From Siphonodentalium dalli (lineage: Eukaryota > Mollusca > Scaphopoda > Gadilida > Siphonodentaliidae): DNA of 64,000 nucleotides. A program made the position numbers and the translations under genes. Below the pieces are notes generated by a model. It was not told the origin of the DNA, made no database searches, and saw only the letters and a program-made list of their open reading frames with translations. Positions 2,901 to 42,700 of this stretch are shown here, one piece after another (position 1 is the stretch's first letter; every line of letters starts with the position of its first letter). The stretch lies in the NCBI GenBank assembly GCA_032622095.1, contig CP136061.1, positions 3,658,001-3,722,000 of the forward strand, in the 5' to 3' direction.

Positions 2901-4180
2901 TACAAAACACCAATGTTCTAATCCAATTAGCATCAATAAATTGAAAATAATAGAATATTAACATATTTCGATCACCTCGTTCAATTTTGCTGAAGAATTC
3001 AAATTTCACAAATTTTCACTAATTTTATACAGAAAATGGAACTTTTATTCAAAATTACATAAAACAAATACCAACATTGGTCTTTAAAATCAGCATGATC
3101 CTTTATTCCGAAAGTTGATGTAGTCTATAACATTCTAGGGAATGTTATAAAGGTCAATACTATTGTTGTAGTAGATTGTCGGTTTGTATCGATATACTTT
3201 TCATGAAATTTCAAGGAATTATACACACATTTATTCCGAAATATTAGAATCGTTTCCATGACAACCAAATCAACGCCCAACCATATAAACCATATAATCG
3301 GATAGGCCACATCAAGATCTTCAAAATGACATTTCACAGTCCATTTGATAGTGTGTTGTTCTCGCCAGCACTGCGATTCCACAAATCGAAATTTTCTCAC
3401 TAAAAAACACTAAAATTACCCAAAAACGGCGTTCCAACCACCATACGGACTCATATCTCAAATAGGAACATTCATCTGAGTTCACATATCGTCCTTATAC
3501 CATTAAATCAGAACTTACCTAAAATTAAAATGAATATTGAAAAATGCAGCCTTCCATTATTCGATCGATGGCATTTATTGACAATACCGTCGATATGTGC
3601 CAATACTTTTGGGAGGCCCGTTTCCATGACAACCTCACCACTTTCAGATCCGATAGTAGGTGATATCAATTAGCCCACATCCTCACCTTTCCAAAGATAC
3701 CACATTTGTCCTTAAGTACGGTGGGTATATTAAATCGAATTTTAGGGGTCTCTGCCGCTCATCTAAATGCTATTAGGGAAAAAATACTTCAGTGCTTCAG
3801 AGAAAACCGCACTTGAATCATTAATGACTCTGCGTGCTAGCAAATGTTGTCAGTTTTTATTGGCTGCGGTCATTAGTTCTGACATAAAAGTTTATCGGAA
3901 AAAATTCCAAGAGTATATTCACCCATTAAAATGGCACACAATGCTCTAGTCAAGTACAGAACTGTTCGTGCATTTCGTCTAATACACAAAAGTGTGCTAC
4001 ATGCAGTTCATGTTTAACAGTGCGATCACGAAGTTGTTGTGCTTTTTATTGTGTGACATGATATGTACTCTGACCTTCTCACCCATTTTGCCCGACGATG
4101 TGCTCCAGATACCGCACTCCACCACTCGGCACCGATATACCATAACGGGTGTGTTCATATCTTTTACTCCAGTTTGATTC

Positions 4181-4333
4181 ATGATGTTCTCCATACAGCG
4201 CCGGTATATCGTAGCTTGCACACTATTCATTGCACATATCATTAGCGACGGGAGTAAAGCTAATTTCGCCATGGTGATGTCCGATTTGTCAATGGTCAAC
4301 AACACAGGACATGCAGAGAATATATTTCCAAAC
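4181..4333 (+). CDS. SLC17-like exon 1 (start codon, TM1, glycosylated loop)
   Basis: Encodes residues 1-51. MMFSIQRRY leads into a hydrophobic TM1 (about 10-33) and then a polar loop with NNT at 40-42, as expected for the lumenal loop 1 of SLC17 proteins. The donor is AAC|gtaagt at 4334, phase 0. The ATG at 4181 is taken as start because an in-frame TGA lies just upstream (4175-4177). An acceptor-like AG lies at 4171-4172 after a pyrimidine run, so a non-coding 5' exon is possible. A second AG at 4197-4198 could instead make this exon begin at 4199, with the start codon in an unseen upstream exon. Confidence 0.8.
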
Positions 4334-7300: not shown

Positions 7301-10300
7301 ATGTACGTGTAATCATGATTACATCATGATTACTTTTACTAAATATTTGGACACTCTTAGTCTCATATTGTATTATTGTGCACAAATACAGACCAAAACA
7401 TATGATAGTGTTTTGTTTGTGGTGCATTGTGAACTTTGATCACTGTATGAAAGCAAACCTAACACTGAAATAGAAAAAGTACAAAGGCGTGGTTGGAGAA
7501 TAATTATTCCTATTATGCTAGTGTTTCTGGTATGCTGGTAGAACGGTGTTGGTTGACATTAGAGGACTGCAGATATAACACGAGGCTCGCAATATTCTTT
7601 CAATTAGCACATGAGAAAATCAAAGTAACAGTCCCACCCTACTTTAAAACAATGGAAAGAAAGTCACGTCACACACACTCCTTTGGTTGCCGTCAAATTC
7701 ATGATGGGCCAGTTTATGTCAGAAACACCTTTGTCCCATCTATAATTGTTTCATGGAATAAATTTCCACCACACATTGTTGAACTACAAATTACGAGTAT
7801 TGACACCTTTAGAGAATTTCTACAAAACCGATCAAAGCTAAGACTGCAGAAACGGAAATAAAGAGGTCGAAATAAGCCGCCTCGTAATCGTGGACACAAA
7901 TAGCCTCACTTCACACACAACCTGATGTATATATGTTTTAGATATGTTATAATTAGATTTCTTTGTATTCCTAAATGATGAGGCATGCAAAAAAGACCAG
8001 TGATCATTCGTATGAGCACTAAATGCAGTACATCACTAAAGCAGCGCTCATTTAGCTCAGTCCAAAACTTATATAATACCGCCATATTCACTGCATATAG
8101 CCCGGGAACTATAAATTTAAAAGGGCGACACTAATAAAATTAATTATGATTTATTAACGGCTGATGAGACCACACAAGAGCTAGATCAACATAAATAAAA
8201 CATAATAACAAAACGAAATATACAAATGATGAGCAAGCACACATTGACAGCATGCAAATAATTCAAATCAAATTAAGTCTAATTCGTGCAAAATCAAATA
8301 AATAGTCTAATTCATGCAAAATCAAATAAATGAGTAACGAATAAATAACAACTGCAGTGTAATCATGTTATTATCTTGTCGGAAATAAAGGAATAAAAAA
8401 CAGCTTCATATAATTATGATGTTAACAGGGATCCACTGTCCCACTAGAGGAAACGCTGGCTATATATGATTTACGTATTACCCATGTCACACAGTGAAGA
8501 GTGTATGAGTCACGGTGTTGAATTTTGTCCTTATCACCATTATACTGAAATGACTCGATATGGCGATATTCTTCTCATTCATTACCCCCATATTAGCAGA
8601 ATTATGGGAAATTGTGGTTTGTAGAGGTACGTCTTAATATCAGTGTCGTTTTATTGTTGCAAGGTTGACAAAATGACTTCAGATGTGCGAGAGAATAGTC
8701 AAAGAGGTGTAACTCAATATAAACTGCAAAACCTCTCAAATTGCGTTTCGATCCAATGACCACACGCGTGCCACCATATGCACCCATTTAGAAAACAAAT
8801 CCAGTAAGTGCCTAAAACCTTTAGTTCCCCGCTTTGAGGGATCTTCATCACCTTTGGTTCCCCGCTTTGAGGGATCTTCATCACCTTTGGTTCCCCGCTT
8901 TGAGGGATCTTCATCACCTTTGGTTCCCCGCTTTGAGGGATCTTCATCACCTTTGGTTCCCCGCTTTGAGGGATCTTCATCACCTTTGGTTCCCCGCTTT
9001 GAGGGATCTTCATCACCTTTGGTTCCCCGCTTTGAGGGATCTTCATCACCTTTGGTTCCCCGCTTTGAGGGATCTTCATCACCTTTGGTTCCCCGCTTTG
9101 AGGGATCTTCATCACATTTGGTTCCCCGCTTTGAGGGATCTTCATCACCTTTGGTTCCCCGCTTTGAGGGATCTTCATCACCTTTGGTTCCCCGCTTTGA
9201 GGGATCTTCATCACCTTTGGTTCCCCGCTTTGAGGGATCTTCATCACCTTTGGTTCCCCGCTTTGAGGGATCTTCATCACCTTTGGTTCCCCGCTTTGAG
9301 GGATCTTCATCACCTTTGGTTCCCCGCTTTGAGGGATCTTCATGACCTTTGGTTCCCCGCTTTGAGGGATCTTCATCACCTTTGGTTCCCCGCTTTGAGG
9401 GATCTTCATCACCTTTTGTTCCCCGCTTTGAGGGATCTTCATCGGGTTATTGGAACTGATGATGATATCGGTAGTTTTTTGTTTACTTTCTAAACATACA
9501 TATACCTTCCGGTGCACTATGCACTATTTTTTTACTTTCTAAACATACATATACCTTCCGGTGCACTATGCACTATTTTCTTACTTTCTAAACATACATA
9601 TACCTTCCGGTGCACTATGCACTATTTTCTTTCTTTCTGCAACATTTATATACACTTATCTAAATTACTAAATTAAATTCTTTGGCTATATAATGTTATT
9701 CGGCCATCCGCATGCGTTCTAAATTATTTTCTAAATTAATAGGACCCAACATCAGATTATGATCCTTTAATAATTCATTTGTTAGTGATAATGACGGTAT
9801 TCATTCGATGATTATAAACTGTTTACCTTTACAGAAGTTGGGTCCTTTTGCAAGATGCTTCACCATTGCTATCAGTTGGTCATGCACAATCTGAAATGTG
9901 AGCTTCTTAAGATGATTCACCATTGATATAAGTTGGTCATACACAATCTCAAATGTGAGCTTCTTAAGATGCCTCACCATTGATATAAGTTGGTCATGCA
10001 CAATCTCAAATGTGAGCTTCTTAAGATGCCTCACCATTGATATAAGTTGGTCATACACAATCTCAAATGTGAGCTTCTTAAGATGCCTCACCATTGATAT
10101 AAGTTGGTCATGCACAATCTCAAATGTGAGCTTCTTAAGATGATTCACCATTGATATAAGTTGGTCATACACAATCTCAAATGTGAGCTTCTTAAGATGC
10201 CTCACCATTGATATAAGTTGGTCATGCACAATCTCAAATGTGAGCTTCTTAAGATGCCTCACCATTGATATAAGTTGGTCATACACAATCTCAAATGTGA

Positions 10301-13300
10301 GCTTCTTAAGATGATTCACCATTGATATAAGTTGGTCATACACAATCTCAAATGTGAGCTTCTTAAGATGCCTCACCATTGATATAAGTTGGTCATGCAC
10401 AATCTCAAATGTGAGCTTCGTAAGATGCTTCACCATTGATATAAGTTGGTCATACACAATCTCAAATGTGAGCTTCTTAAGATGCCTCACCATTGATATA
10501 AGTTGGTCATGCACAATCTCAAATGTGAGCTTCTTAAGATGCCTCACCATTGATATAAGTTGGTCATACACAATCTCAAATGTGAGCTTCTTAAGATGCC
10601 TCACCATTGATATAAGTTGGTCATGCACAATCTCAAATGTGAGCTTCGTAAGATGCTTCACCATTGATATAAGTTGGTCATACACAATCTCAAATGTGAG
10701 CTTCTTAAGATGCCTCACCATTGATATAAGTTGGTCATGCACAATCTCAAATGTGAGCTTCTTAAGATGCCTCACCATTGATATAAGTTGGTCATACACA
10801 ATCTCAAATGTGAGCTTCTTAAGATGCCTCACCATTGATATAAGTTGGTCATGCACAATCTCAAATGTGAGCTTCTTAAGATGCCTCACCATTGATATAA
10901 GTTGGTCATACACAATCTCAAATGTGAGCTTCTTAAGATGCCTCACCATTGATATAAGTTGGTCATGCACAATCTCAAATGTGAGCTTCGTAAGATGCTT
11001 CACCATTGATATAAGTTGGTCATACACAATCTCAAATGTGAGCTTCTTAAGATGCCTCACCATTGATATAAGTTGGTCATGCACAATCTCAAATGTGAGC
11101 TTCTTAAGATACCTCACCATTGATATAAGTTGGTCATACACAATCTCAAATGTGAGCTTCTTAAGATGCCTCACCATTGATATAAGTTGGTCATGCACAA
11201 TCTCAAATGTGAGCTTCTTAAGATGCCTCACCATTGATATAAGTTGGTCATGCACAATCTCAAATGTGAGCTTCTTAAGATGCCTCACCATTGATATAAG
11301 TTGGTCATGCACAATCTCAAATGTGAGCTTCTTAAGATGATTCACCATTGATATAAGTTGGTCATGCACAATCTCAAATGTGAGCTTCTTAAGATGCCTC
11401 ACCATTGATATAAGTTGGTCATACACAATCTCAAATGTGAGCTTCTTAAGATGCCTCACCATTGATATAAGTTGGTCATGCACAATCTCAAATGTGAGCT
11501 TCTTAAGATGCCTCACCATTGATATAAGTTGGTCATGCACAATCTCAAATGTGAGCTTCTTAAGATGCCTCACCATTGATATAAGTTGGTCATGCACAAT
11601 CTCAAATGTGAGCTTCTTAAGATGATTCACCATTGATATAAGTTGGTCATGCACAATCTCAAATGTGAGCTTCTTAAGATGCCTCACCATTGATATAAGT
11701 TGGTCATACACAATCTCAAATGTGAGCTTCTTAAGATGCCTCACCATTGATATAAGTTGGTCATGCACAATCTCAAATGTGAGCTTCTTAAGATGATTCA
11801 CCATTGATATAAGTTGGTCATGCACAATCTCAAATGTGAGCTTCTTAAGATGCCTCACCATTGATATAAGTTGGTCATGCACAATCTCAAATGTGAGCTT
11901 CTTAAGATGATTCACCATTGATATAAGTTGGTCATGCACAATCTCAAATGTGAGCTTCTTAAGATGCCTCACCATTGATATAAGTTGGTCATGCACAATC
12001 TCAAATGTGAGCTTCTTAAGATGATTCACCATTGATATAAGTTGGTCATGCACAATCTCAAATGTGAGCTTCTTAAGATGCCTCACCATTGATATAAGTT
12101 GGTCATACACAATCTCAAATGTGAGCTTCTTAAGATGCCTCACCATTGATATAAGTTGGTCATGCACAATCTCAAATGTGAGCTTCTTAAGATGCCTCAC
12201 CATTGATATAAGTTGGTCATACACAATCTCAAATGTGAGCTTCTTTAGATGCTTCACCATTGCTGTTAGTTGGTCATACATAATCTGAAATGTGAGCTTC
12301 TGAATAATATTCCACCGATATGCCACCAATGTTACTGTTTATTTGGTTGACATTGTAATTGTCCATATGACATACCCCACAATGCGTAACAAGGATTATA
12401 CATCGTCTGTGGCCTATTACGAGTCCGAGGGTGAAGATGTAGTACTTTAAAATCCGGTATGTTACAATGATTGTTTGTGATTGCTTATACTGGGTAATTT
12501 ATTTTTTTTAAACAGGCCGTGGAACTATTGTTCTGGCATTTGAACGATTTGAATACGAATTATGTAATTATTCTCATATGTATGTATATATATATATATA
12601 TATATATTAATGTTTGTGACAGTGTGCTGATTCGGATGTGAGTACTCCGTATTTATTTTCTTGTTAGTAGCTGGTAAGAAGCCCAATTGTATACATCTTT
12701 AATGTGAAACTAGCCTGAAAAACAGTATTTTCACTCCAGTGCACGGTGATTGGGACAAATCGGGACAGCCATGTTGATTGGTCCGGAGCCGACATTACTC
12801 TTATATACACTGCCCACGGCGTTGGAGACACGGTCGCACAAATGCCATTCGCAATATTGTGCCTCAGATTCCCACCACGACGGTAAGTCTGTCGGAGGCG
12901 GTAAGTCTGCCAGAGTACGATAATTCTGCTGGGGGCGATAAGTCTATCGGGCGCGGTAAGTCTGCCAGTTGTCGATAAGTCTGCCAGTGGTCGACAAGTC
13001 TGCCAAAGTACGATAAGTCTGCTGGGGGCGATAAGTCTATCGGGGCGATGAGTCTGCCGGTGGTCGATAAGTCTGCCAGTGGTCGATAAGTCTGCCAGTG
13101 GTCGATAAGTTTGCTGGGAGCGATAAGTCTGCTGGGGGCGATAAGTCTATCTGGGGCGATGAGTGTGCCGATGGTCGATAAGTCTGTCAGGGGAGGATAT
13201 GTCTGCCGGAGATTATAAGTCTGTCAGGGGGAGGATATGTCTGTTGGAGACGGTAAGTCTTCAGAGCCGGTAAGTCTGTCTGGGCGGTAAGTCTGCCGGA

Positions 13301-16300
13301 GATTATAAGTATGCCGGGTACGGTAAGTCTGCCGAAGAATAGATGTATGCCGGGGACGGTAAGTCTGTAGGGGGACGGTAAGTCTGATTGGGGATGGTAA
13401 GATTACCTGAGGACGATAAGTCTGCCGGGGAAGATAAGTCTGCCGGGCGGTAAATCTGCAGGGGGCGCTAAGTCTGACGGGGAGGATAAGTCTGCCAGGC
13501 GATAGTAAGTCTTCTTGGGACGGTAAGTCTGCCTGGGGGACGGTAAGTCTGCCGGAGATTATAAGTATGCCGGGGACGGTAAGTCAGTAGGGGAACGGTA
13601 AGTCTGATTGGGGGTGGTAAGATTACCTGAGGACGATAAGTCAGCCGGGGAAGATAAGTCTGTCAGGGGAGAATAGGTCTGTTGGAGGCGGTAAGTCTTC
13701 AGAGCCCGTACGTCTGCCGGGGCGGTAAGTCCGCCGGAGATTATAAGTATGCCGGGGACGGTAAGTCAGTAGGGGAACGGTAAGTCTGATTGGGGGTGGT
13801 AAGATTACCTGAGGACGATAAGTCTGCCGGGGAAGATAAGTCTGACGGGCGGTAAATCTGCAGGGGGCCTCTAAGTCTGCCGGGTCGATAAGTCTGACGG
13901 GAAAGATAAGTCTGCCGGGCGGTAAATCTGCAGGGGGCCGCTAAGTCTGCCGGGAGAACGTAATTCTGTAAGGGGGGCAATATTTACCATGAATTTGGGT
14001 AACTTATTCGGGCCATAACATGCACATGGCAGTCTTTTTTCACAAAATAGTGGTATTTTGTATTGTGATTTATATATTTTGACCACTAATCCAATTAGGC
14101 AATCCATAGTTATGATGTCAATACAAGAGTGAATTCCTAGGGGAAATCGGGGTCCACTCATCCTTAGTATATCATTTTTTATCCCCCCCCCTTGCCAATG
14201 CATTCTCTTATATATGCGAGTCGACCATAGGTCGCCTCGCATATATAAGAGAATGCATTGGCCTAACAATTTTTTACAATTTTAATAATTTTTTCTTGTA
14301 TTCTTTAACAATTTTATGATTTCACCCATACAGAGCCCCATGAGACAAACATGAGCAGACGACACTCTTCTATATGCTTCTATATATGTGTGGGGCTCCC
14401 TGCAGGGTAATGTTTTTTATTTTATGTCCTAAAAATTGTAAGAAACATTTATTTAAAAGAAATGATAAAAAATTGTTAGGCCAATGCATTCTCTTATATA
14501 TGCGAGGCGACATATAATCGACTCGCATATATAAGAGAATGCATTGGCACAGGGTAAAAAAAACCGTAACCCTAATCTTAAACCTATTGATGTACCAAGA
14601 GCTGCTAGACTAACTGATCATTTATCATAACAATCCATTTACCAAAACGATTATTGTATTCGCTCTACATGTACGAAAGGAAGCTGTTTGTCATAATATT
14701 GTGTTTGGCTTTAATTGCCCCCATGTAATAACACGTAGAAATATAAGCAGCCACACATAGTCTAACCTAACGAAAACATGCTGATATGCAATGTCGTTCA
14801 CTGAAGCAGAGAACAGTCAACTGGAAATAAGCCACAGTGTTGAGAGATATGGTGGTTAGCTTGAATCTGGTTATGAACCAATAACCTAAAACTCAACTGA
14901 GCACAATTATTCATTTATCAACAGGCATGCATGACATGAACATTCTCAAATATTAAAATTTTATTTATGGGTAGGTGCCTTTCCAAATGAAAATAATCAT
15001 TAAAGTTCATGATTAAAGAATTTTTTTATCTAATCTCATGATCTTCGGATATGATATGTACTTTTGAAAACAACTTGTTTTTGGTTTTGGTACCTGAAAA
15101 CAGTGAAATTTGTCATGCCATGCAAGTAAATAAATTGACAATACATTTTATAATACAGTTAGCAAATCACTGCATATTTATATATGTATTTTTACCAAAT
15201 ATTTTGTTTTGGGCATGCTTTGGTTTATCTTTCTTTGGTTTTGTAATTTTCTCTTACTAATTATTTAATCCATCCATTGTTTTTAGCTTGTTTTCTCAAC
15301 GATCCCATATTTTTGGTTTTTCAATTTGGCCAAGATCAGAAAAATGGCCAACAAAATTAGGGAATGGCCAAATTGGCCAAAAGAATTTTCTGGCCAGCGT
15401 GAATCCTTCGCTATACATTTACTTTATCAAGACGTGATACTCTGAAGGCAAATTAAGCATGCATATTGGTTCCTTCTAAATGGGTTCTAGTGCAGTTTAA
15501 AGAGCCACAATCAGATGACTTCTCTGTTTGAGAATCAACATATTATATGTTATAGCACCGTAGGTCATACTGCATAATCGGTACTATTTGTGCACGATGT
15601 ATGATGCGGGGTGAGGACGAACACGAGTGAATGAATAATGAACAAAGTAGTGTGAGTTAAACATTAAATACACGGATGTCCTTGGTTGTAATTTAGAAAT
15701 AAATGTTACCAAATTATGAATTTCCTCAAGGATATACTAATAGTATAGTATAATGATAGTATGAATATGCTATTATACACAAAGCGAGTGTTTGTTTATA
15801 TACAACAATGTGAAATAAGCAAAAATGTCAACACCGTTGTGATTTGTTTTTGAGAGATTGATTCACGGTGACCCATTGAACACTGATATATTGTGTGGCG
15901 AGGATTAGCGAGCGATAATACTGTATGTTTTAAACAGCATGGTACAGTTGTAACCGAAGTTCACACAGTGGGATATATCGGGTGATGAGTGCTTTGATTA
16001 TCGCACACTCTTTGCGTACTGTGCTGTACAATAATCGTGGATTTTGTTTACCAGCACTGCGTACGATCTTGACAATAACATGCTATTAATGCGATATTTA
16101 TGATTGGTGTAAGAACATATTTGTTCTATATGTTAAGTCTTTCTATTTGTGGTGGTTTATTTTAACAGCAATACCCATCGCGACGGCCCAAAAAAGTTAT
16201 ACACTGATATAACTATACAGGGTCTATACACTAATATAACTATACAGGGTCTATACACTAATATAACTATACAGGGTCTATACACTAATATAACTATACA

Positions 16301-19300
16301 GGGTATATACACTAATATAACTATACAGGGTCTATACACTAATATAACTATACAGGGTCTATACACTAATATAACTATACAGGGTCTATACACTAATATA
16401 ACTATACAGGGTCTATACACTAATATAACTATACAGGGTCTATACACTAATATAACTATACAGGGTCTATACACTAATATAACTATACAGGGTATATACA
16501 CTAATATAACTATACAGGGTCTATACACTAATATAACTATACAGGGTATATACACTAATATAACTATACAGGGTCTATACACTAATATAACTATACAGGG
16601 TCTATACACTAATATAACTATACAGGGTCTATACACTAATATAACTATACAGGGTCTATACACTAATATAACTATACAGGGTCTATACACTAATATAACT
16701 ATACAGGGTATATACACTAATATAACTATACAGGGTCTATACACTAATATAACTATACAGGGTCTATACACTAATATAACTATACAGGGTCTATACACTA
16801 ATATAACTATACAGGGTCTATACACTAATATAACTATACAGGGTCTATACACTAATATAACTATACAGGGTCTATACACTAATATAACTATACAGGGTCT
16901 ATACACTAATATAACTATACAGGGTCTATACACTAATATAACTATACAGGGTATATACACTAATATAACTATACAGGGTCTATACACTAATATAACTATA
17001 CAGGGTCTATACACTAATATAACTATACAGGGTCTAGTTGACAATTGACATTTTGGCGTCTAAGGCGAAAAATTGGTGAACGAAAATCGTCCGAGACCTA
17101 GTCGAAAATTGATATTCTGGCATCTAAGGCGAAAAGTTGGGCAACGAAAATCGTCCGAGTCATACATATACATTGACAAGTTGGTCTCTAACGCGAAAAA
17201 GTCGGGACAAAAAAAGTCGTCTGTGCGTACATTAAGAGAGTTCCAGTTACTACCGACAGCGCTACGGGGTAGCCATATGCGTTGTCACGAGTGAGGTGAT
17301 CCGGGGGTCGGTGGTTGAGCGCTTGCACTTGACTTCGGGGTCGGTTGCGTATAAACTAATATGATGAACTATATTTCAGGATTGTTGGGCTGCTTGCCAC
17401 CCTGATTGGGGCGATGTACTGGATTTTGCCTTTCGTTATAACCAGAAGTTATGCAGCAACTGTAGCCATGCGAGTTATTCTCGGATCTCTTGAGGTGAAT
17501 GCGCTTTGTATAATAGTAAGGTGCACACAAGCAAATGATTGGATAAAAGCATAAAAATTTGTATATATATATATACTTCATGAAATGGGGATCAATATAA
17601 GAGTTAGTAGATTCAGGCTTGAAAGTGACCTAGATGACATTGAGGGCAAGGTCAATGGTACATATTTATATAAATATTCACAGCCGGTGTGAGTTATAGC
17701 CGTTTTAATACGACCCATTACTTATATATATCGACCCATTACTTATATATATCAATGTATGACCATTTCAGTAAATGTTTGTGTAGAATTAACAACGCAG
17801 TTTTTCTATCTTCCTAAACGATTGCACAAATTAAATGGCAATGTAAAATCATTATTAGAAATACAATTTCCACGTGATGCCATCAAATTATCGATTATAC
17901 ACACTGTTTTGATGCGTTCAATATATATATATAGGTGGCATATGTTCTGCGAAAATATATTAAGTTATTAACCCTTTCTATACTAAATTGATTCTCCAAT
18001 CCAGTTATAAAAGTGTGCATTTTAATGGCCTAGTATTCATATGGATAGGGTTTCCAGGAAAAACATGCATACGAAAGATTATAAAAGTACAAAATGAGCC
18101 CTGTTTATTTGAGTGAAATGTTCAGATAATAAGTTCAACAAACGACCTATGGGAAAAGTTAAGATAGTAATGGTAGTCGATTGTTGAACTTATTATCTGA
18201 ACATTTCATGGGAACTACTCGTCAATGAGTATTTAGTATAGAACGGGTTATGTAACGTTTTTGCTCACCCAACAGGTTGCAGAGTATTGCGAAATTTTAA
18301 TTCATGTAGGTATACCATGAAGTAGATAAAATTGACATGCTGACAAGGTAAATGTTTCTCTGTTCGCTATTCAATAAAAGGAAAATCAATCAAGGGCAAT
18401 GTTTATAAATATTATAATGTCGATTATGTCGAATATACGTATACAATTTGGTACCAATTATGAGAATATAATAATATAATAACCATTATGTGCACGACCA
18501 AGAGATGATATTTATTGGCCATAATAGAATATCGGTATCATGTCATTGACATCAAAATGTTGGCACATAATTTAATTATTGAATGATTTGATAGGGAAGT
18601 TTTGGATGCTTCAGACACACACAAGACAGAACAAGGGTGTGGACACCAGAGCTTGAAGCATATATATAGATTTAAGATGATCACCTAACGCTACGGTAAA
18701 CCTGTGACCGTAATATATATATATATATATATCGTACCTCATACAAACCCGCAATTGAATGACTTCCGATGTAACAGTTCCTACACAGTGATGCTGACAC
18801 TGGCTTCCATTTCAGGGTGGTATAATCCCAGCATCATTTGGTATGCTGGCCGTCTGGGTTGTGCCATCCAAGAGAACGTCTTATGTTGGTTTGGTATGTT
18901 CTGGTGAGAATTTATTATTTTAGATATTTGCATTTCTAGAATTATTATTGATTCAATTTGGCCATGTAATAGAATGAGGATATAATTACCTTCATTATAT
19001 CGACGATTAAGGATTAGTGGACCTCGCCTGGCAAAAATTGTCATGTCAATAATTTACAAATAGCAGCATACTGGTTGATCTAACAGTTATAAAACTGTCA
19101 TAAAATCATAAGCGGCAAAAGAAATGAAAAAACAAGAAATTCACATTGAAAATGAGACAGCAAAATCTCATATTTCCATATTCTCTGTAACATGTGCTCG
19201 GCTGAATTTTCAATCTAAGATATTATTTGTTTTCTTTTATCTAAAAATTATATATTTTGCAGCAAATAATTTCGAGTTGCCTATTCTCACAGTAAACATG

Positions 19301-22300
19301 TGATTTCTGGTGAGGTCAAGTGAGGTCTCCTGATCCTTAATTAGCCGTGATAAGTTATTGTCGTGAGTTGAGAGCACACAACGAAATATGAACCATCTCT
19401 GCAAGAATACCATATAGATGTCACTTCCGGGAAATGGGGCTACCAGGAAATTGACTTTGTAAACAAAAAGACTTATGTCTCCATGCTCGAGAAAACCATT
19501 GTTTAAAAGATTCGACATTCGTGATGGCGAGGCGTTTGCAAAACCATATCGAAGAATGATGGCAAATAACAAGCCGAACGGTACGCCGATATTTACGTAT
19601 TTTTGTGAGTTTCATTGCTATTATATTACAAAAATTCAGCGAAAAATAGAGTTATGAGATGACTTGCAGTGAATAACTGTACTTCAAGGCATTTTTGTAT
19701 TATTAAATTGACCGGGCATATTGCGTATATATTGGTAAATATCAGTGACAAAGACTCAGTTCTGCTAAATATCATAATTATCTTTCTGTTTGACAAATAC
19801 CACATCATTGTAACGGGTTCAGTAACGAGGAGCAACCTGCTCCTATGTATTGCAGCATAAACAATCTTTACTCCGATTGCAAAGTTAGCATATCATTCAA
19901 GGGTGGGTTTGTTGATGGCTTTTAATTCCACAACTTCATAAACATCCCATGGAATTGCATAAAGCTGTCCATCTGTGATCCAACATCAAGTTTATAGCGG
20001 GTTAACTAGCTAACATGTACGTATGTCAGAGCAGGGGCTTCGCTATTTCAAAATATGTCCGCGAATTTGGAAGAACTGCAACGTTTGTCAAGAAAACGCA
20101 AAGTGCACTATTGGTTATGTAAATAAGCAAGGCCGTCGACCATAGATATAGCTACAATAACTAAACTTATAGCAATAGATTGAAATGCAACTAGGACAGC
20201 CATGAATGTTAATTTTACTACATGCGTGCTAAATGTTATCGACAACATTTTCCCGGAAGTGGGATCTGTATGGTGAATAAACTTGGATCGTGTCTACAAG
20301 AAGTCCAATCGAACAAACATAAATCCGGGTCAAATGTAAATGTAAATCGTGTTTCTTGAGGACAATGTTTTAGGAGCGCTTACTTTTTCTAAGTTTTCTT
20401 ATAGACAGTGTATTAACGGGAGTGAACGTCAATATTCTGGTAAACACTTTTCAACAAACGGTAAGTGTGTTTTCATCAACTTTGTCTTTCTTATGAATAA
20501 TATACCCGCGAGCCCTGCACCATTCGATCAAAGTTTATTCGTAAATTGATGTTGAACGCATATTTTCGCACTTAAAACTAAACGCGCTTGCTTCCAAAGC
20601 ACCATTTCTCCCAGAAAAAATATTTTGCATATACTGTTATCCCCATGAAATGATTATTTAAATGTTTATCATTTTTCGATAAATTTACAGAAATACAGCC
20701 CGATAAAAATTAAACGGTTGCAAAACGTAGCGTCGACAGGCACAGGACGATCGGTAAAACATTTTCAACATCGGTTGAAAGGTTGATAAACACCCCTCTA
20801 CCAATATCAAATGATGATTGCCAGATCATATATATTTTGGGCACGCTAATTATGAATGTCAACATCATTGTTTCAAGAACGATGCTGTTGGCGATGACTA
20901 TTTCTTAAACATGACCGACTTACTCAATGAAATAGTCAAAAATGTTAACACACTGTGGATCTGGAGTTTTCTAAATGCCGTTCGCTTGCCGTGTTGTTAT
21001 CGCATCTGATTGTCTCCTTATTCGGTACAAAATAGAGTAATATTTTCAGGTTGTTACTTCAGCCCAGTCTTAGCTCTCCTGTTATCAGGGATAACCACAT
21101 GCTATGTGAGCTGGTCATTCAGCCTATATGTATATGGTGAGTGACGGAGCAGTCAAATGACGACATTATATGCGAGCTGGGTCATTCAGCCTCTATGTTG
21201 AGGGTGCGTGATGGAGGTCAGTCATATTACTAAAACCCCTGGTCGGTTTTGGGCACGAGATACTCAACATGTGTATTATACACATATAAGTTCTATTAAT
21301 TCGCATTATCCTCCTTTGTTAAATTGGTGTGTAATGTGAAGAGAATAACGATCTACATACTTTATATACTCTATACATAGCTCGTTATTTCACATACATC
21401 ACATCACAGAACGGACATTACATTGACGTGTAGACACACACATATATATATGCCATGCTGACCATGAAAGCAATAAAATATAAAACATAATGAAGATTAT
21501 CTTATTTTCTTAGCATATTTCGCGTATAATGGTCTTCATAATGGTATGTGATATCCTCATTGGCGATTAAGTCATATGGTAACTTTGACCCTCTGTATTT
21601 GTGATTAATAAAACGCTACAATGCATAGCCGCGGACAATTAAAATCCGTCAAACCGATCAGGACTGGGCCACTCAGTGGCTCTCTTCTGATCGAATGCTC
21701 AAGAAAAATTCAAGCTGACGCTCCTATGCAATTAACACGTATTGCACATACACCCGTGTTGGTTACTCCTCACAAGACATTGAACAGTAGTCGGATTCCT
21801 TATGTCATTTTGCATTTTTGGTTTGTTAAAAGCGATCTGAAAACGGATTATGTATGCCTAGTTGATGTGTTTTCAGGATTGACTTGTTTCCATTCTTGAA
21901 TTTTGGCGGGTCGTCCTAAATCGGGGTCAACATAATTTAGAGAGCGTTTCGTATTTACAGAAAATGATAGACGGTGCCACCTGGCGTATGGTGATCGGTG
22001 CGACCTATCCAAACTACCATATATGACCCATTTATATATTTTTGACATGCAACATAGACGTAGTTTTAAAAAGAATGGATGTGATCAGATGATTCTTGCT
22101 GGCTACAGTTGAGATCAAAATTTAACACTGAACCCACTGGAGAATTTCGTGTTATGCTCAAACGTTGATTGTGATATCACTTATTGGCAATCGTGCGCAA
22201 CTATATATGAAGATTAACACTCGTGTTTGACCCTCTATAACTATCCGTGATTTAATGGATGCAAAATATGATATAGTTATGCCTCAAGAGACAGTAATTG

Positions 22301-33700: not shown

Positions 33701-36700
33701 TCTGTCATAATGCTGAATGGTAGATGGTGGGTAGTGGTATATTGTCAAATAACAATGGTTGGATTAAAAATGTCTAGACACGGTATTTAATTCGCCAAAG
33801 TTTTTTTTAATTTCGCCAAATAAAAATCAGAATTGGTCAATAAAGATTTTCGGCCCATATTATGAGGAAAAGCTTTTGTGTATCAGTATAAGAAAGAGAA
33901 TTGCTAATATTACATACAAAAGTTTGCCAAATGTAATGTTGACGTTTTCGTAATCATTCAGTTACAAGAACGACAACACATACACAGTAAGACATCCATG
34001 AGATGTATGATATACGTATTCATACTCATAATCATCATCATCATTTGATTGCAAATCAAATCTGATGACTTTTGATTGCAATATTAACTGATTACAAATG
34101 AATGTTCATGTATGTCACAAACATCGCTAATTATTAATCATATTCATATTTCTAGAGTTGGCAGAAGTGTCAATCATTGTTTTGAAATCGTCCAAAGATG
34201 TTGTATCCACTATCATATCGGAAATCTATTTCACGCCAATATTTCACGTTGCGTTAAAAAGTACAGTAATGCCCTTATTAATCGACTCCTTTAACCACAG
34301 CAGAATTATGGGTAACTTTTCAGGATTTAGTCGGAAATATGGCTTGTTGCCATTCATCAGAAAGCTCTCACCAAGAGCTTTCCTATGAATGCAACAAGCC
34401 ATATTTCCGACTAAATCCTGAAAAGTTACCCATAATTCTGCTGTGGTTAAAGGAGTCGATTAATTAGGGCATTACTGTATGTCCAGATGTATTCATTTAA
34501 CATGGACATTGCAGCTTCCAACTCTGCCCTTTTGTGTTGTTATGGAGAGTAACTTCTGGAATAAGGACTTTGTATTGATGTTATAATGATTCCTGAGAAT
34601 CTGAAAAGTCTCAGTTACATTTGCCCTGAATTTCTCAAGCTACGATGAACACGTTCTATTTCAACACTTTAGTACTGCTGATGAGGGTCCCACACTGTAT
34701 TGGAATATTCTAGAATAATACTATTAATTTTAAAGCTGTCGATGGTTCCATGGAAGAGTATAATGACGTCGCTTCCTGTTATTGCGGTGATGGCTGCTAC
34801 ATTCTGTAGAAACTGGATTGTCACACTGACATATACAGAGCAACCTCAATACTTCAAGGATTCCTTTGGCCAAAACTCAGCCACGGTTAGTGTAACCTCT
34901 TCTATACTGAATGGATTCGCCCATTCAACTATCCAAGGTTTAAATGGTCTATAGTTCATTTGGAGGGAGGTTACTGTAATAGAAGTTTGGGCGTACTTGT
35001 CAGATGGCGAACAACATACTTTATCATTTCGCTGTTTATAATTATCTTGATAACGCCAACGAAACTTTAGTTTCTATCTTGTTTGTATTTTGCTAAATAA
35101 AATCATTGAAAAACATTTGAGGAAATTGACAACGATCGAACGGAAGTCGGAAATAAACACTTTATATCTATTCTTTACCTATACTTGCTGGTGTGAATTT
35201 CAAACACTTAAAAGCCATTTATAACATATATTGCATCAACATACTCAGGGTCGATAGAAATTCCAACGCGGACCCCAATTTGCGGTCTTCGATGACTAAC
35301 TCCGAATGGAAAGAAATGCTACTAGTTGTCTTATTATATCTTCCAGTGATCACTGTCATGTGATACGTATGCAGCTGAAAAAGTGTTAATAAGGGGGTAG
35401 TCATGTAGCACATTCCTTTATCACCAACTAGATTATCGCATTTCACCGTTTCGCCGTTGAGTCTTATTCATTAGACTAATTTTGTTTTCGTGGTATGGTA
35501 ACTAAGGACTGCACGTTCACAATCGCCGAATTTTATGTAAAGCACTGAATATTGACATCTGTGTTGATGATATAGTGAACATCTGTCAACGAACTGTTAG
35601 TCAAAACAATGTACTAGTAACTTCCTCGCACTCAACTTCAGTGTGCCCCCCGTGACTCCACATGTTTAAACTTTCAGCACAATTGACGTGGCTCTCCCTA
35701 ATTTATCATGTCGGGAATATTTTACATTTATTTCTTTTTAACGTTTTACACTGAAGAAAATTCAGGATCACCGTTTGTTCATTTCTGGTGCAAAAACTTA
35801 CATGATGTCAATGGTATATAGTCTGTTTATATAAGTATTGATGTTTTTGATGACATGTATGTATATTGATCATGGAATGTAATACATGATGGTTTTAGAC
35901 GACATATATGTTGAAATTATTCTCATTGTTTGATTTTCCAACCATATATTAGTGGGGAATATATTCTTTTTAGACAAACATCATCATATTTTTCTACTTT
36001 GTGTCCAATGTATTTCTGAAAATTTCAACATTAGGGGTGTCTCGTCGGAAATTTCAAACTGTTGAAAAGTTTGATGTACCAGTTGGAAAGGTCCAACACA
36101 AGGAAGGGGTGTAAATGGTATTTTGCGAACAAGGGGTGTTTGGTCTGTTTCAGGGGGTGCAGGTGGAAATTCAATGTGGATGCCCCCCAACGAAGACCCT
36201 CTATCCACGTCCCTGATTATTAGTCTCTATACTTTATTGCAGATTGGGCTGTTGGGGTGTGTGCCACATTTTCTTATGGGCAGCACAGCTATGACCTCTG
36301 GGTTTATTGTCGATGCAGCGACTCAATCCAAGCGGCTTACTCTAACTGTAGCGAGAAAGATGGCAAACTCTCTTGGTAAGAAAACTTCAAATATCAGGAC
36401 TGGTTAGATTCACGCATCAGCTATATGTCATAGTACGATAGAAGAGACGAGGTGAGCACGATGAGAATCCGTCCGATTTACCATCTCCCGATATAATATC
36501 GATATGTTAACAGGACTGATCGGCGAAGTATGGAATACTATTAAGGCCAAAACATTATCATAATGGCGCTTCTAGCGAAAGCATCGAAAGCGCCAGAAGA
36601 GCCAAAACGTGCGACATTATGGTGCACATCTTGGCGCTTGTGTCGATTTCGGAGCGCGCCAACATGTACGATGTATATATTGGTTATATGTGCAATGTAG

Positions 36701-39700
36701 CTATTTTACATTGCAATCAACCATACATGTATGTGTGAACTTTCCTCCATCGATTTCATAAAACTGAAAATTTATTTTAGCTGTACATGTTTGAAATGTA
36801 CATGTAAAACCTTGGTATACGGTATTAATAACAATCTATGCCATAAAATATGATTAAAATTCTATAATTCATTACCATTTGAAACGTCTGTGTCTCAGAA
36901 GATGCCCATGGAGAAATAGAAAACAGCTGAAATAATAGAAAGATTCCCCCGTTATGGCTCCCAGAATTCAACAGAATTCAAACTAAAAATGTATTTTCAA
37001 TGGAAGGGGACTAACTCTATCTTTAAAATATAGATTTATTCGCCCTCCATTGAAAATAATTCACATTGAACTACAATCCAGATGAAACTTAAGCACAAAA
37101 CACGTCGTTAACTTAACAAAATGTTCACAGTTTATTACACCGGATAATACAATGTTTTTGAGCTTCCTCCGTCAAATGGTATATAATATAGCATATATGT
37201 TATATATGTGATATGCGGGTTCGAAAATTATATGGGCTTTTAATTTAACATTATTACATTCCTATGTGACGATAATTTCACTTTAACTAGTGCGTTATGT
37301 ATTCATACCCGCTATCGAAATGTATTGTGGCTATAAGAGCGGTATTATGCCAAAAAAAAGTGTTTTGGTTCTCGGGCAATGAGGGAGGGAGGGTTTTATT
37401 TTTATTTTTTATTTTTTTTCTGCGCATAGTAAGCATGGACAAAGATACCTTCCTCTGTCTAGTAATAACCAGAAAGGTAGAGGGAACTGTTATGCATATA
37501 AACTCATTTAGTCTTATATAAAAATGACATTGTACTACCAGTGTATGACTGTGATTACCTAACAATATATAATACCCCTGACATTAACTACTGTTATTGT
37601 TGTCTAAAAACTGATACCTCCCCATTCTAATATGTGATCCTGAATTTAGTTCTGTGCCTTTCAATTGTATAAAGTTACAATTAGTGTAAGTTGTTCACAA
37701 TGACTAATTGTAGGAAGAGCATGAGGGTCAGCTAATCATTTTCTTAATTGTAGTCATATACTTCATGTTGTAAGCCTGCAAGTCACTTTTTAACACATTA
37801 CATGTTAGAGCTCAATGCACACTAATATTCAACACATATCTGCTATGGACATGTTGATAAAATCCAAAAACAAAATACAAAAACAAAATTTCAAATTTAT
37901 TTTTTCGTAAGTGTTTTTGTCATAACATCAGGCATTGCAATATGGCGGGGCCTGAGAACCAAAACCTTTTTTTTGTGTTGGCCTTATTCGGATTTCTGGT
38001 AAATGGGATATTTATAGTAGAATATTATAAACAGAATAATCACTGAAATGAACTGGTCACGTGCAATAATTCATTCTAACTCACTCACTCATTCATTCTG
38101 CTAACAGGTAAATCAAATTCCTGCGGCGCTGTAGAGTTTTAATATTAATAAAGATATATGTAGATTCTTTGTAAGTTTTTGGAATATTGCTAGGTTTATG
38201 ACTGCGTTACACTTTGATTTTATGTAGGTTTTGTGATTGAGGCTATGGATGCAATATACTTCGATTTTATGTAGATGTTTGGTGTATTAATAACGACATA
38301 TGTAGATTCTTTGTAGGTTTTGGTAATATTTCTAGGTTTATGACTGCGTTATACATCGGTTTTCTGTAGGTTTTGGAATCGAAGCTATATTCATGATGGC
38401 GTTGTATTTTGTAGGTTTTGGAATCGAGGCTATATTCATGATGGCGCTGTATTTTGTCGAGAGTAATGAGTGGCGGTTGGCGTTCGTTTTTCTGTCGGTC
38501 GGCGTCGGATTCAGCGGTCTTATTGTGGCAGGTATTAGTTTAACACTCTCTTCTACTAAATACTCATTGATGGGTAGTTCCCTTAGGACTTGATCAGATA
38601 ATTAGTTCAACAAATTACCATAGTTGTTAAATTACTTATCTGAGCATTTCCGACCAATTAATAGCAATCCTTCTTCACTTGTATTGTGTCCGTCTGGCTA
38701 TCATCTGCTTATATTAGCTGACCACCCCTCCAAATGAATAATGTAACTTTCATAACTGAATGGGGGAATCCATTTAGTATATAATGTGTTAGTGTGACAC
38801 ATTGATGCTATGTTTTCATTCCTCCCGACCCTGTCTTTGTTGCTCAAGTATATACGTATGAGCAAATAAATATGTTCAAACCACACTCGGGTCTGGTTAG
38901 GATCCACGGGGCCGTATTTACATTTATCTATTGACGAATGTGCTATCTTGAATTTGATTGGTCGATAGCTACACAAGATAAATCCGGATTGTGTGGTCAA
39001 CATCGAACTCTCGTGATATTTCTGGGAAAAACACATAATTTTTTCCGTATTGCGTAGCTGCCTCGATTCCGGAATATTATAGTGTCGCTTACGTCACAAC
39101 GTGGAAGTAAATTACTAAATATCGTCTGTTGTTTTTTTGAGATCCTGAAACACACAGAACCGTTTTCCGTATCGTGTAGCTGCTTGGAATATTAGGTTCA
39201 AATTTCCCTATTCATTTCGATGGGGGACAGAAGGAATATGTTGATTTGAATATACTGTTAAGGTAAATATATAAAATCGTCACCCCGTATCTGTTAACGT
39301 TGTACCGGTTTTTACATACCCTCAGCCGTCGGCCTCGTGGGATACGACTAGCGTCGGGTAGGTAAACACGGGGTTACTAATAGTATGGTTTTATTTCCAG
39401 GCTACCAGAGCGACCATTTGTCCATAGCGCCCGCGTACTCGCCCATATATACACTCGCGTCACTGTAGGATCGACGGGGACCGTATACATACATGGTTTT
39501 CTTTGCAGGGTACCAGAGCGACCAGTTGACCATAGCGCCTGCATACTCGCCGATAATAGTAGCCTACACCCGTGTTGGGGCAGTCGGTGCGGTAGGATGC
39601 ACGGTGACCGTTGCAGCTATAGTTGGAGACAACCACGTAAGCCGCCCTCTAACTCTCAAATACGGTCTATCTCTCTATAACAATTTATATACAGTTTCCT

Positions 39701-42700
39701 GGTTATAAAATAATCAACATGAGTCGAAGACTCCTATCTGTAAACGCTTATATCAATTATTATTAATTAGCTACAGGTTATCGGCCGCAATAAGTAGAAC
39801 GCTGCCCGCGTCATAAGTAACAAAAGGTCGGCCAATAAGTAGAAAACGCGGCCAATAAGTAACAAAAAGTCGGCCAATAAGTAGAAAACACGGCCAATAA
39901 GTCAAGGTAACGTAAATGACGTCATACGTAACTAGTTCGATCGGCAAAGAATATTGGGTCGACGGAAGATAGATTACAGTTGCTTTCGGATGAATTACGG
40001 ACTGTCACTGCATTTTTTTTGGGAGTAAATATACGTGGATGAACTACTATCCGTATCAATACCATTCCCAGTGGAAACAGACAGTACTGTGAAATCGCTT
40101 CAAGTTATTCACTAAGTTCACAAGAATAAATATTGCAGCAATAATTGTTAATTTAATAAAGCGCACAATGGAGTATATCTATGTTAATATATTCAGCCTG
40201 TGAAATAACAATTGCCAATGTTGCTAATTAATAAAATACTTATTAATTGGTTGTTTCCATATTGACCGAGTTATGAGGCCTCGGTCTGTCGTATTAGCCT
40301 TCGGCCTGCGACGTCAGGCCAATACGACAGACCTCAGCCTCATAACTCGGCCAATATGGAAACAAGCAATTAATAACATATAATATTGATTTATTTCGAA
40401 TGTTCTGGTATAATACACATACAATCAATTTGTGGCATATTACGGCTCGCGTTTGTTCGGGGCGTATCATGTGGTATAATTCTATTTAAAATTTTAAAAA
40501 TAGTAACGAAAAGATGTCCCACTTGATTGTCGCATTATATAAGAACACGTCGATATAAAATCAATAATAATTGATAGAAGCCTTTCGGGACAGGTATCAT
40601 CGACTCATATATATTATTTTATACCCCGGAAACTATATATAATGTATTTATGAAGAGATCGACCAACTTTGTACCCATGAAACTATATAAAACGTGTTTA
40701 GAAAGAGATACACCATCTTTGTACCAAGGAAACTATATAAAACGTGTTTAAAAAGAGATAGAACATCTTTGTACCCAGGAAACTATATAAAATGTGTTTA
40801 GAAAGAGATAGACCATCTTTGTAACAAGGAAACTATATAAAACGTGTTTAGAAAGAGATAGACCATCTTTGTACCCAGGAAACTATCTAAACGTGTTTAG
40901 AAAGATATAGACCATCTTTGTACCCCGGAAACTATATAAAACGTGTTTAAGAAGAGATAGACCATCTTTATACCCCGGAAACTATATAAAACGTGTTTAC
41001 AAAGAGATAGACCATATGTGTACCCAGGAAACTATATAAAACGTGTTTAGAAAGAGATAGACCATCGATGTACCCAGGGAACTATATAAAACGTGCTTAG
41101 AAAGAGAAGACCATCTTTATACACATGAAACTATATCAAACGTGTTTAATAAGAGATAGACCATCTTTGTACCCAGGAAACTATATAAAACGTGTTTAGA
41201 AAGAGATAGACCATCTTTATACCTAGGAAACTATATAAAACGTGTTTAAGAACAGATATACCATCTTCATACCCCGGAAACTATATAAAACGTGTTTAGA
41301 AAGAGATAGACCATCTTTGTACCCAGGAAACTATATAAAACTTGTTTAGAAAGAGATAGACCATCTTTATACCCAGGAAACTATATAAAACTTGTTTAGA
41401 AAGAGATAGACCATTTTTATACCCAGGAAACTATATAAAACTTGTTAGAGCAAGCGATAGACCACCTTTGATATCACTGAATCGATTCTCCGTTGCATTC
41501 ATTTATCAAAATACACATGTATTGGAATTGTGTATTATTCCTTTCGACTCATGTTTTCATACTATACGGGTGCAGAAAACAATTGTTTCCTATATTCAGT
41601 CAACGGGAGGGAGTGTTAGCTAAAGGATTTAATTTGTTTGTTTATTGAACTATGTGACTTGGATAAGACTGTACGTTGTGTATAAAGTACGTATAAGAGT
41701 ATTTCGCGTATTAATCAACCTATTTTGATTCCCAGAAACGGGCTGGAGTGTGGCACAAGTGACAATTTCTAGGTATAATTTGGGGATCCAAACTCACATG
41801 GCACTTTAATCTGTGTGCTGAACTTATTAGATAAACATATACCTACAAATAAATGAATTGAAATCGAGTAAAATCAATCAGTGAGTGTCCAGTTATCAAA
41901 TTATGTTCTTATATATGTGAGTTATATCTTATATACATATACGTGTGCTTTCTGTTTTATTGTTCCCATTTTTCTTTGAAAAATAATTAAGAGGTGGTAA
42001 TGTTAAAGTCTTGATTGCGGTACTTACCATTTCTGTTCTAAATACTCATTTGGTGATTAGTTCCGTTGGGAACCATAAGTCGTTTGTTGACGTTTTCTTC
42101 GAACGGCTTCTTCTTCGTGTTAAATGCAGACCCCATTGGGATGAATATATCCATTGCTGTATTTTCGCACTGTTGTCCGGTTCGGTAAATTCAAGTACCG
42201 CTTGCAACGGATTTTGTCGAATTTCTAGCCTGTTCTCTTGAAACTGCGTCCATACTGAACGTATTTCAAAACCAAAGTACGCCCATATCGGCATTATTTG
42301 AATCTGAATTACGCTCTATATGAACGTAAACGGGGCAGGAAAACAATCGTATAAAAGCGTATTCATATTGCAAATACGTCCGCATTGGGCGTATGTGATG
42401 CACCCCATCCATACGAAACACTCCGATATTGGCATTATTTAATCTAAATGTATTCATCGACATGACTTACCAGATTCATGCTCTTTGTATAATGTGGTGT
42501 CACTGCGGCCCGCACCATTCAACGGAATAACAGGTATACGCACATTATGGACTTATTTCATAATCTACTGTTTCGTGCCCCATTTACGTTTATATAGAGC
42601 ATAATTCAGATTCAAATAACGCCAATATAGGCGTATTTGGGCTTTTGAAATACATTCAATATGAACCTATTTGCATGAGGATGTTGGGATTTCGGTGTCA

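What the first reader, a model, noticed from the sequence alone, without database searches (positions are those of the whole stretch)
12881..13975. A splice donor amplified into about 60 tandem copies
The exon 2 donor (CGGTAAGTCTG) is the first unit of a 1.1-kb minisatellite whose monomer keeps the donor core; some 20 units still read GGTAAG and many others GATAAGT. The intron therefore opens with a run of potential U1-binding sites. In frame, the codon right after the true junction is TAA, so splicing at any downstream unit would truncate the protein. The array could act as a U1 sink, a splicing or premature-polyadenylation regulator, or be neutral. Minisatellites starting exactly at a 5' splice site are, to my knowledge, rarely described.
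Basis: partly seen in the sequence, partly recalled or inferred. Interest (0 to 1): 0.85.

Follow-up and report, generated by a model that had tools for sequence, protein, structure and literature searches.

The report
Splice-donor minisatellite in a transporter gene
A short DNA unit containing the end of an exon and the start of the next intron has been copied about 59 times in a row inside an animal transporter gene, which looks like a harmless by-product of a repeat-rich genome and belongs to a rare but already described kind of repeat.

Summary
The window's + strand carries a solute-carrier gene (MFS superfamily, SLC17-like). Coding exon 2 is 12740-12882; its donor ACG|GTAAGTCT is unit 1 of an 18-bp minisatellite at 12879-13954: 59 units, 20 GGTAAG, 19 GATAAGT. 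The in-frame codon after the exon is TAA at 12884. The unit consensus begins GACG, the exon's last bases, shared with the two nearest C3 paralogues, which lack this array: the array grew out of the junction.

It recurs. A C3 paralogue has about 8 units of acceptor plus exon start ahead of exon 2. Exon 5's donor sits in about 5 units in an inverted copy of the locus. A late exon's acceptor has 2 units here, 5 in the copy. The exon-2 array has 59 versus 70 units.

A planned test showed no significant enrichment: 6 of 48 junctions touch an array, against 9.3% of 11,322 random non-exon positions.

This is a "mirage" minisatellite, described in lancelets, with a human donor precedent (IFI6). Most likely it is a tolerated passenger. 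One oddity: 35 of 59 units lost the essential G+1 while +2 to +6 stay 92-97% intact, including 15 consecutive units near the exon. A U1-decoy role is not excluded, but nothing shows it.

The parts
4181..4333 (+). coding exon 1 of the SLC17-like gene (donor AAC|GTAAGT; true 5' end of the exon not determined)
   Evidence: tblastn to C3 paralogue L021 E=5.6e-15; sequence
12740..12882 (+). coding exon 2, 143 bp, ctccag|TGC ... ACG|GTAAGT
   Evidence: protein search of own genome at E up to 10 lists 8 places: the window, the inverted copy and six on C3, two of these weak (E 0.26 and 1.4); junctions of the six C3 places read; identical in the inverted copy D
12883..12888 (+). true donor GTAAGT, shared with repeat unit 1
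12879..13954 (+). 18-bp donor minisatellite, 59 units, consensus GACG(A/G)TAAGTCTGCCGGG, in intron 2; degenerate end to 13975
12884..12886 (+). TAA, first in-frame codon after exon 2
12971..13248 (+). 15 consecutive units lacking G at +1
17380..17494 (+). coding exon 3 (completes the split codon CG|G)
18816..18903 (+). coding exon 4
21050..21136 (+). coding exon 5, with a decayed remnant unit downstream (about 21150-21225, by eye); about 5 tandem 106-bp exon+donor units in copy D
34736..34885 (+). later coding exon ('exon 7')
38365..38457 (+). 45-bp x 2.1 tandem repeat: acceptor TGTAG plus the first 40 bases of a probable late exon ('exon 8', about 38415-38531); 5 copies in D
   Evidence: exon assignment by resemblance only (no Pfam hit)

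Best explanation
It is a 'mirage'-type minisatellite: a tandem duplication that spanned the exon 2/intron 2 junction (GACG|GTAAGTCTG plus a few intronic bases) and was then amplified and reshuffled by slippage or unequal exchange to 59 units (70 in the inverted copy). Unit 1 stays the working donor because its four exonic bases are coding. The other units lie in the intron and are removed with it. Stray use of a later unit would give an immediate TAA and probably nonsense-mediated decay, so such transcripts would be silent losses. The cause is the high tandem-duplication load of this genome, which does not spare splice junctions; no junction-targeted machinery or regulatory role is needed. Shown here: anatomy, origin from the junction, copy-number change, recurrence at other junctions, no significant enrichment over background. 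Inferred: that unit 1 is the donor used, that later units are little used, and neutrality.
For: Array and donor. Real exon of an MFS/SLC17-like gene, under moderate constraint: summing over exons 2, 3, 5 and 7 against the nearest C3 paralogue (198.39-198.43 Mb) gives 27.5 synonymous differences in 119.6 sites and 35.5 non-synonymous in 372.4. GACG|GT ends exon 2 in 2 of 6 C3 paralogues, the two nearest, neither of which has this array, so the junction preceded it. Same process elsewhere in the family: 40-bp x 8.5 array with acceptor plus exon start (C3:198.351 Mb), exon-5 donor units in D and at C3:198.412 Mb, a 31-bp x 2.2 donor duplication at C7:88.36 Mb, a 45-bp acceptor unit in 2 versus 5 copies. 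Copy number of the focal array 59 versus 70. Arrays at junctions do not differ significantly from background: 6 of 48 versus 9.3%, binomial 0.29. In lancelet genes comparable arrays are reported not to disturb splicing (passages read).
Against: G+1 loss is uneven: lost in 35 of 59 units against 2-5 of 59 at +2 to +6, with 15 units in a row near the exon (shuffle P 0.003; near/far Fisher p 0.010-0.025 at three cut-offs). This could be a trace of selection against competing donors, although units are not independent. Exon 2 and its flanks are 100% identical between the two copies over 301 bp against 5.0% mismatch overall, so conversion or constraint may act there. Restricted to junctions not inspected before the rule was written, 5 of 28 are hit (binomial 0.11), so a modest enrichment is not excluded. 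No RNA evidence. In IFI6 downstream units are reported to be used.
Confidence: 0.76

Rival explanations
1. Regulatory array: the units bind U1 (as competing donors or as decoys) and tune exon-2 splicing, transcript decay through TAA, or protection from early polyadenylation.
For: 16 further sites equal the true donor in U1 pairing. +2 to +6 stay 92-97% intact while G+1 is lost, which would turn donors into non-cleavable U1 sites, most of all near the exon. U1 binding just downstream of a donor can promote that donor in human PAH exon 11 (abstract of PMC5933811). Strong G-skew +0.37.
Against: No column-specific constraint between the copies: 20 substitutions in 1003 sites, 2 of 55 at +1, 3 of 277 over +2 to +6. 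Duplicated sites are not disarmed elsewhere: all 5 exon-5 donors (the true one and 4 extra) are intact in D and 6 of 8 extra acceptors keep AG at C3:198.351. Array length drifts, 59 versus 70 units.
Confidence: 0.12
2. Junction-targeted amplification: some process linked to splicing or transcription preferentially duplicates exon-intron boundaries in this genome.
For: Several junction arrays in one gene family, on both donor and acceptor sides. Post hoc count in hand before the test: 4 of about 36 junctions.
Against: Planned test: 6 of 48 junctions (4 arrays) versus 9.3% of 11,322 random non-exon positions, binomial 0.29; 5 of 28 (3 arrays) among junctions not inspected before the rule, binomial 0.11, and junctions of one exon are not independent.
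Confidence: 0.07
3. The array arose first inside the intron and the exon acquired its donor from the array edge.
For: The donor is identical to many units.
Against: Donor position is conserved in paralogues, and the bases GACG before it in the two nearest, none with this array.
Confidence: 0.02
4. Assembly artefact.
For: Long arrays can be misassembled, and the window has a nearby inverted near-copy.
Against: Two places, 5.0% different over aligned blocks, carry the same array with largely the same unit order and clean junctions.
Confidence: 0.03

Closest known systems
'Mirage' minisatellites of lancelet (Branchiostoma) genes: Adh3, globins BflGb6/BflGb9, TnC, PGBD5
   Same: Tandem repeats whose unit spans an exon-intron boundary, at donors or acceptors; units 10-160 bp; copy number differs between haplotypes; many extra units carry AG/GT signals (passages of PMC3087553 and PMC3902484).
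   Different: Here the genome is about 2.2 Gb in 9 contigs, unlike lancelet assemblies (about 0.5 Gb, recalled), and gave no GFP-family hit (not proof of absence), so probably not a lancelet; 59-70 units; only 4 exonic bases per unit; most units have lost G+1. Splicing could not be tested.
Human IFI6 (6-16) minisatellite with multiple splice donors (Turri, Cuin and Porter 1995)
   Same: By its title, and a passage in PMC4526556, a minisatellite whose repeat units serve as splice donors; its place at exon 2, 12-bp unit and about 26 copies are recalled, not read.
   Different: In IFI6 downstream units are used and give protein isoforms; here the first in-frame codon after the exon is TAA, so downstream use truncates.
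Minisatellite-type internal tandem repeats that modify human genes in segmental duplications
   Same: Variable minisatellites in recently duplicated genes that lengthen exons or introns and can activate cryptic splice sites (passages of PMC2812944).
   Different: The passages seen do not describe units seeded by, and contiguous with, a genuine splice junction.
Intron gain by tandem duplication of AG/GT-containing sequence
   Same: Duplicated splice signals that could become new exons or introns (discussed in PMC3087553).
   Different: No new intron is shown here.

Membership tests
Mirage minisatellite | Repeat unit contains both exonic and intronic sequence of one boundary | tested here: met
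   Unit consensus GACG|GTAAGTCTG... (G or A at +1); GACG is also the exon end in the two nearest of six C3 paralogues
Mirage minisatellite | Array contiguous with the genuine boundary | tested here: met
   Unit 1 is the exon-2 donor in both C1 copies of the locus
Mirage minisatellite | Copy-number instability between haplotypes or copies | tested here: met
   59 versus 70 units; exon-8 acceptor 2 versus 5; exon-5 donor remnant versus about 5; whether the second copy is an allele or a paralogue is unresolved
Mirage minisatellite | Both 5' and 3' boundaries affected in the genome | tested here: met
   Acceptor array at C3:198.351 Mb and acceptor repeat at 38365-38457
Mirage minisatellite | Regular splicing not disturbed | not testable with these tools
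   No RNA data
IFI6-type donor minisatellite | Minisatellite units supply alternative donors that are used in mRNA | not testable with these tools
   16 further sites tie with the true donor in U1 pairing; use unknown
IFI6-type donor minisatellite | Downstream use leaves the frame open (isoforms) | tested here: not met
   TAA at 12884 directly after the exon
SLC17-like MFS transporter gene (host gene) | MFS_1 profile over the first exons | tested here: met
   59.2 bits for exons 2-5 and 35.4 bits for exons 1-3, cut-off 33.4
SLC17-like MFS transporter gene (host gene) | Closest to SLC17 among MFS | tested here: inconclusive
   All 4 PDB hits at E up to 0.1 are VGLUT2 or VGLUT3; TIGR00894 E=3e-18 is the best NCBIfam match but far below its cut-off

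The most novel reading that the evidence does not exclude
The array is a bank of 'disarmed' donors: units keep the U1-pairing bases +2 to +6 but most, above all those nearest the exon, have lost the one base (G+1) needed for cleavage. U1 would still be recruited along the start of the intron without splicing there, reinforcing the true donor or shielding the intron, with array length as an evolvable dial.
Probability: 0.08. Interest if true: 0.75.

Novelty: new member of a known kind. Interest (0 to 1): 0.42.

Why it matters
It gives a genome, apparently not a lancelet, in which junction-spanning minisatellites occur repeatedly in one gene family, with a near-identical second copy that shows how much they change. 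That makes an old question testable by RNA-seq alone: how does the spliceosome choose one of many equal neighbouring donors or acceptors, and do such arrays seed new introns or exons? It also suggests a null model: in the loci sampled, junctions are hit about as often as other non-exon positions.

Tried and rejected
Early idea that the flank was a minus-strand retrotransposon LTR (the C3 homologue lies near what look, by eye, like retroelement remnants): dropped, because the shared 143 bp is a coding exon with conserved AG/GT, frame and family.

Idea that arrays are attracted to junctions: tested with a rule written down before fetching (note). 24 loci, 48 junctions, of which 20 had been looked at before the rule (12 of the exon-2 loci; 8 of the window's and L021's exons 5 and 7). 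6 of 48 hit, 4 distinct arrays, binomial 0.29 against 9.3% of 11,322 random non-exon positions; 5 of the 28 not inspected before, 3 arrays, binomial 0.11. In two of the arrays (exon 5) the acceptor counts as hit only because the array starts 4 bases inside the exon. No significant enrichment, a modest one not excluded. An earlier count said '5 arrays'; 4 is right. The focal exon-2 donor and the exon-8 acceptor are not in that set; the count in hand before the test, post hoc, was 4 of about 36. The unrelated-family part of the test failed: of 20 Sushi loci fetched, 17 lie in one 2,818-residue open frame; I examined 4 of the 20, of which 3 have introns at the match edges, and 0 of their 6 edges carry an array. 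Too few to count.

Selection on the donor core: columns +2 to +6 show 3 of 277 substitutions between the copies against 17 of 726 elsewhere in the array; too few to claim constraint. Column conservation within the array and the G+1 pattern are weakened by non-independence of units.

Taxonomy: searches with PF14830, PF01353 and PF00379 rang nowhere, the control genomes included; PF00264 gave 6 matches. Rfam (gathering threshold) and tRNA scans of the window gave nothing. The promoter scan is for bacterial promoters and not informative.

Full report
WHAT IS THERE. The window is C1:3658001-3722000 of a 2.2-Gb genome in 9 contigs. Its + strand carries a multi-exon MFS transporter gene. Coding exon 2 is 12740-12882, between ctccag and GTAAGT. 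An own-genome search with the C3 version of the exon-2 peptide, at E up to 10, lists 8 places: the window, an inverted copy on C1 and six on C3, two of them weak (E 0.26 and 1.4). In all six C3 places the exon is flanked by AG and GT; four are 143 bp, the others 140 and 134 bp. Exons 2-5, conceptually spliced, hit MFS_1 at 59.2 bits, cut-off 33.4; exons 1-3 hit MFS_1 at 35.4 bits and VGLUT2 of the PDB at E=9e-4; TIGR00894 is the best NCBIfam match (E=3e-18, far below its cut-off).

THE ARRAY. TRF gives 12879-13954, period 18, 59 copies. There are 20 GGTAAG, 19 GATAAGT and 18 GTAAGT. 21 GT sites pair with U1 at -8 kcal/mol or better, against a mean of 6.7 and a maximum of 14 in 100 shuffles; 17 sites, the true donor included, tie at -9.3. 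The codon after the exon is TAA at 12884, so splicing at any later unit would truncate the protein. The unit consensus begins GACG, the last four exon bases; single units vary there (the four columns are 88, 53, 71 and 86% conserved). GACG also ends exon 2 in the two nearest of the six C3 paralogues (198.390 and 198.351), which lack this array; the four more distant ones end differently. So the array came from the junction and not the reverse.

THE SECOND COPY. Much of the window, though not about 43.4-59.3 kb, is matched by an inverted copy within the fetched stretch C1:1.69-1.74 Mb. Mismatch is 5.0% over 22.9 kb of aligned blocks, some of which include repeat arrays, but 0 of 301 bp over 12590-12890. 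Whether it is an allele placed apart or a segmental duplication is open. Its array also starts at the donor, has 1,289 bp and 70 units, and differs from the window's by several blocks of units and 20 substitutions in 1003 aligned bases.

RECURRENCE. In the C3:198.351-Mb paralogue eight extra units of acceptor region plus exon-2 start (TGTACCGTGGGTGGTACCAGCC-like) lie directly ahead of exon 2; 6 of the 8 keep AG. TRF gives 40 bp x 8.5. In copy D exon 5 is followed by about four further 106-bp units of exon plus donor, with 5 of 5 donors intact counting the true one; the window keeps one decayed remnant; C3:198.412 has 2.2 units. The SLC17-like exon at C7:88.36 Mb has a 31-bp x 2.2 duplication spanning its donor. 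A probable late exon at about 38415 has a 45-bp acceptor unit, 2 copies in the window and 5 in D. At C3:198.390 a decayed second acceptor plus exon start lies 131 bp upstream of exon 2, a 31-bp array starts 37 bp after its donor, and a 45-bp x 5.2 array starts 6 bases after the end of exon 3; the last two do not include the donor.

IS IT SPECIAL TO JUNCTIONS? A test planned before the fetch counted arrays touching or spanning junctions: 6 of 48 (12.5%, 4 arrays) against 9.3% of 11,322 random non-exon positions in the same 24 loci, where arrays cover 8.3% of bases outside the sampled exon; binomial 0.29. 20 of the 48 had been looked at before the rule; among the other 28 there are 5 hits (3 arrays), binomial 0.11. 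No significant enrichment; a modest one is not excluded. The unrelated-family sample was uninformative.

IS IT CONSTRAINED? Within the array, +2 to +6 are 92-97% conserved, yet +1 is G in only 24 of 59 units (31 A, 3 C, 1 gap). Fifteen consecutive units from 12971 lack it (shuffle P 0.003; Fisher near versus far p 0.010-0.025 at three cut-offs). That is what purging of competing donors would look like, but amplification of one G-to-A founder gives the same picture. Between the copies, +1 changed in 2 of 55 sites, once in each direction, and extra splice sites at two other junction arrays are mostly intact. I do not claim selection.

HOW IT MOST LIKELY WORKS. A duplication across the junction leaves one intact exon-intron boundary; extra units fall into the intron and are removed. 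Growth and loss then proceed as in other minisatellites. Leaks to downstream units would be destroyed or truncated because of TAA. This part is inference; no RNA was available. A U1-binding role remains possible: U1 bound just downstream of a donor can promote it in human PAH exon 11 (abstract of PMC5933811).

WHAT IS KNOWN. [quoted passage not shown] A passage of PMC3902484 adds PGBD5 and TnC. Passages of PMC2812944 describe variable minisatellites that change exon and intron lengths of human genes in segmental duplications. For human IFI6 I saw only the title of Turri et al. 1995 and a citing passage in PMC4526556; the paper itself is not held, nor is the lancelet Adh3 paper. The searches listed no other report of arrays seeded at splice junctions; I judged most listed papers by title and abstract start only, and this speaks for the held library alone. 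The finding is a new member of a known kind, with an unusual length and G+1 pattern.

Noticed in passing
window 1-64000 (not about 43.4-59.3 kb) and C1:1691001-1741000 (L008-L012): Much of the window is matched by an inverted copy about 2 Mb away (5.0% mismatch in aligned blocks, many insertions and deletions): a segmental duplication or a misplaced haplotype.
   Followed up: partly
9852-12301 and 8817-9443: A 57-bp array has 43 copies here but about 3 in the inverted copy, and the 33-bp array has about one unit there, interrupted by an insertion (by eye): large copy-number change beside about 95%-identical sequence.
   Followed up: partly
about 14189-14554; also L002 about 640-990 and 3600-3820: Paired palindromic elements (CCAATGCATTCTCTTATATATGCGAG...), repeated in several loci; look like small mobile elements.
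   Followed up: no
L022 3560-3787: A 45-bp x 5.2 array starts 6 bases after the end of exon 3 of the C3 paralogue without including the donor.
   Followed up: partly
L022 5271-8147 and inverted copy about C1:1.706-1.708 Mb: Open frames that look, by eye, like retroelement polymerase and integrase; seen as alignment rows.
   Followed up: no
46232-46606: Open frame resembling the C-terminal part of a LINE reverse transcriptase by eye; no Pfam hit.
   Followed up: no
C3:206394530-206402929: A single open frame of 2,818 residues holding dozens of Sushi domains; TRF finds 348-bp units in part of it.
   Followed up: no
58440-59024, 40618-41470: Other arrays whose units contain acceptor-like TTTTCTTACCCAG|G or ACCCAG|G by eye; not tied to any known exon.
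   Followed up: no
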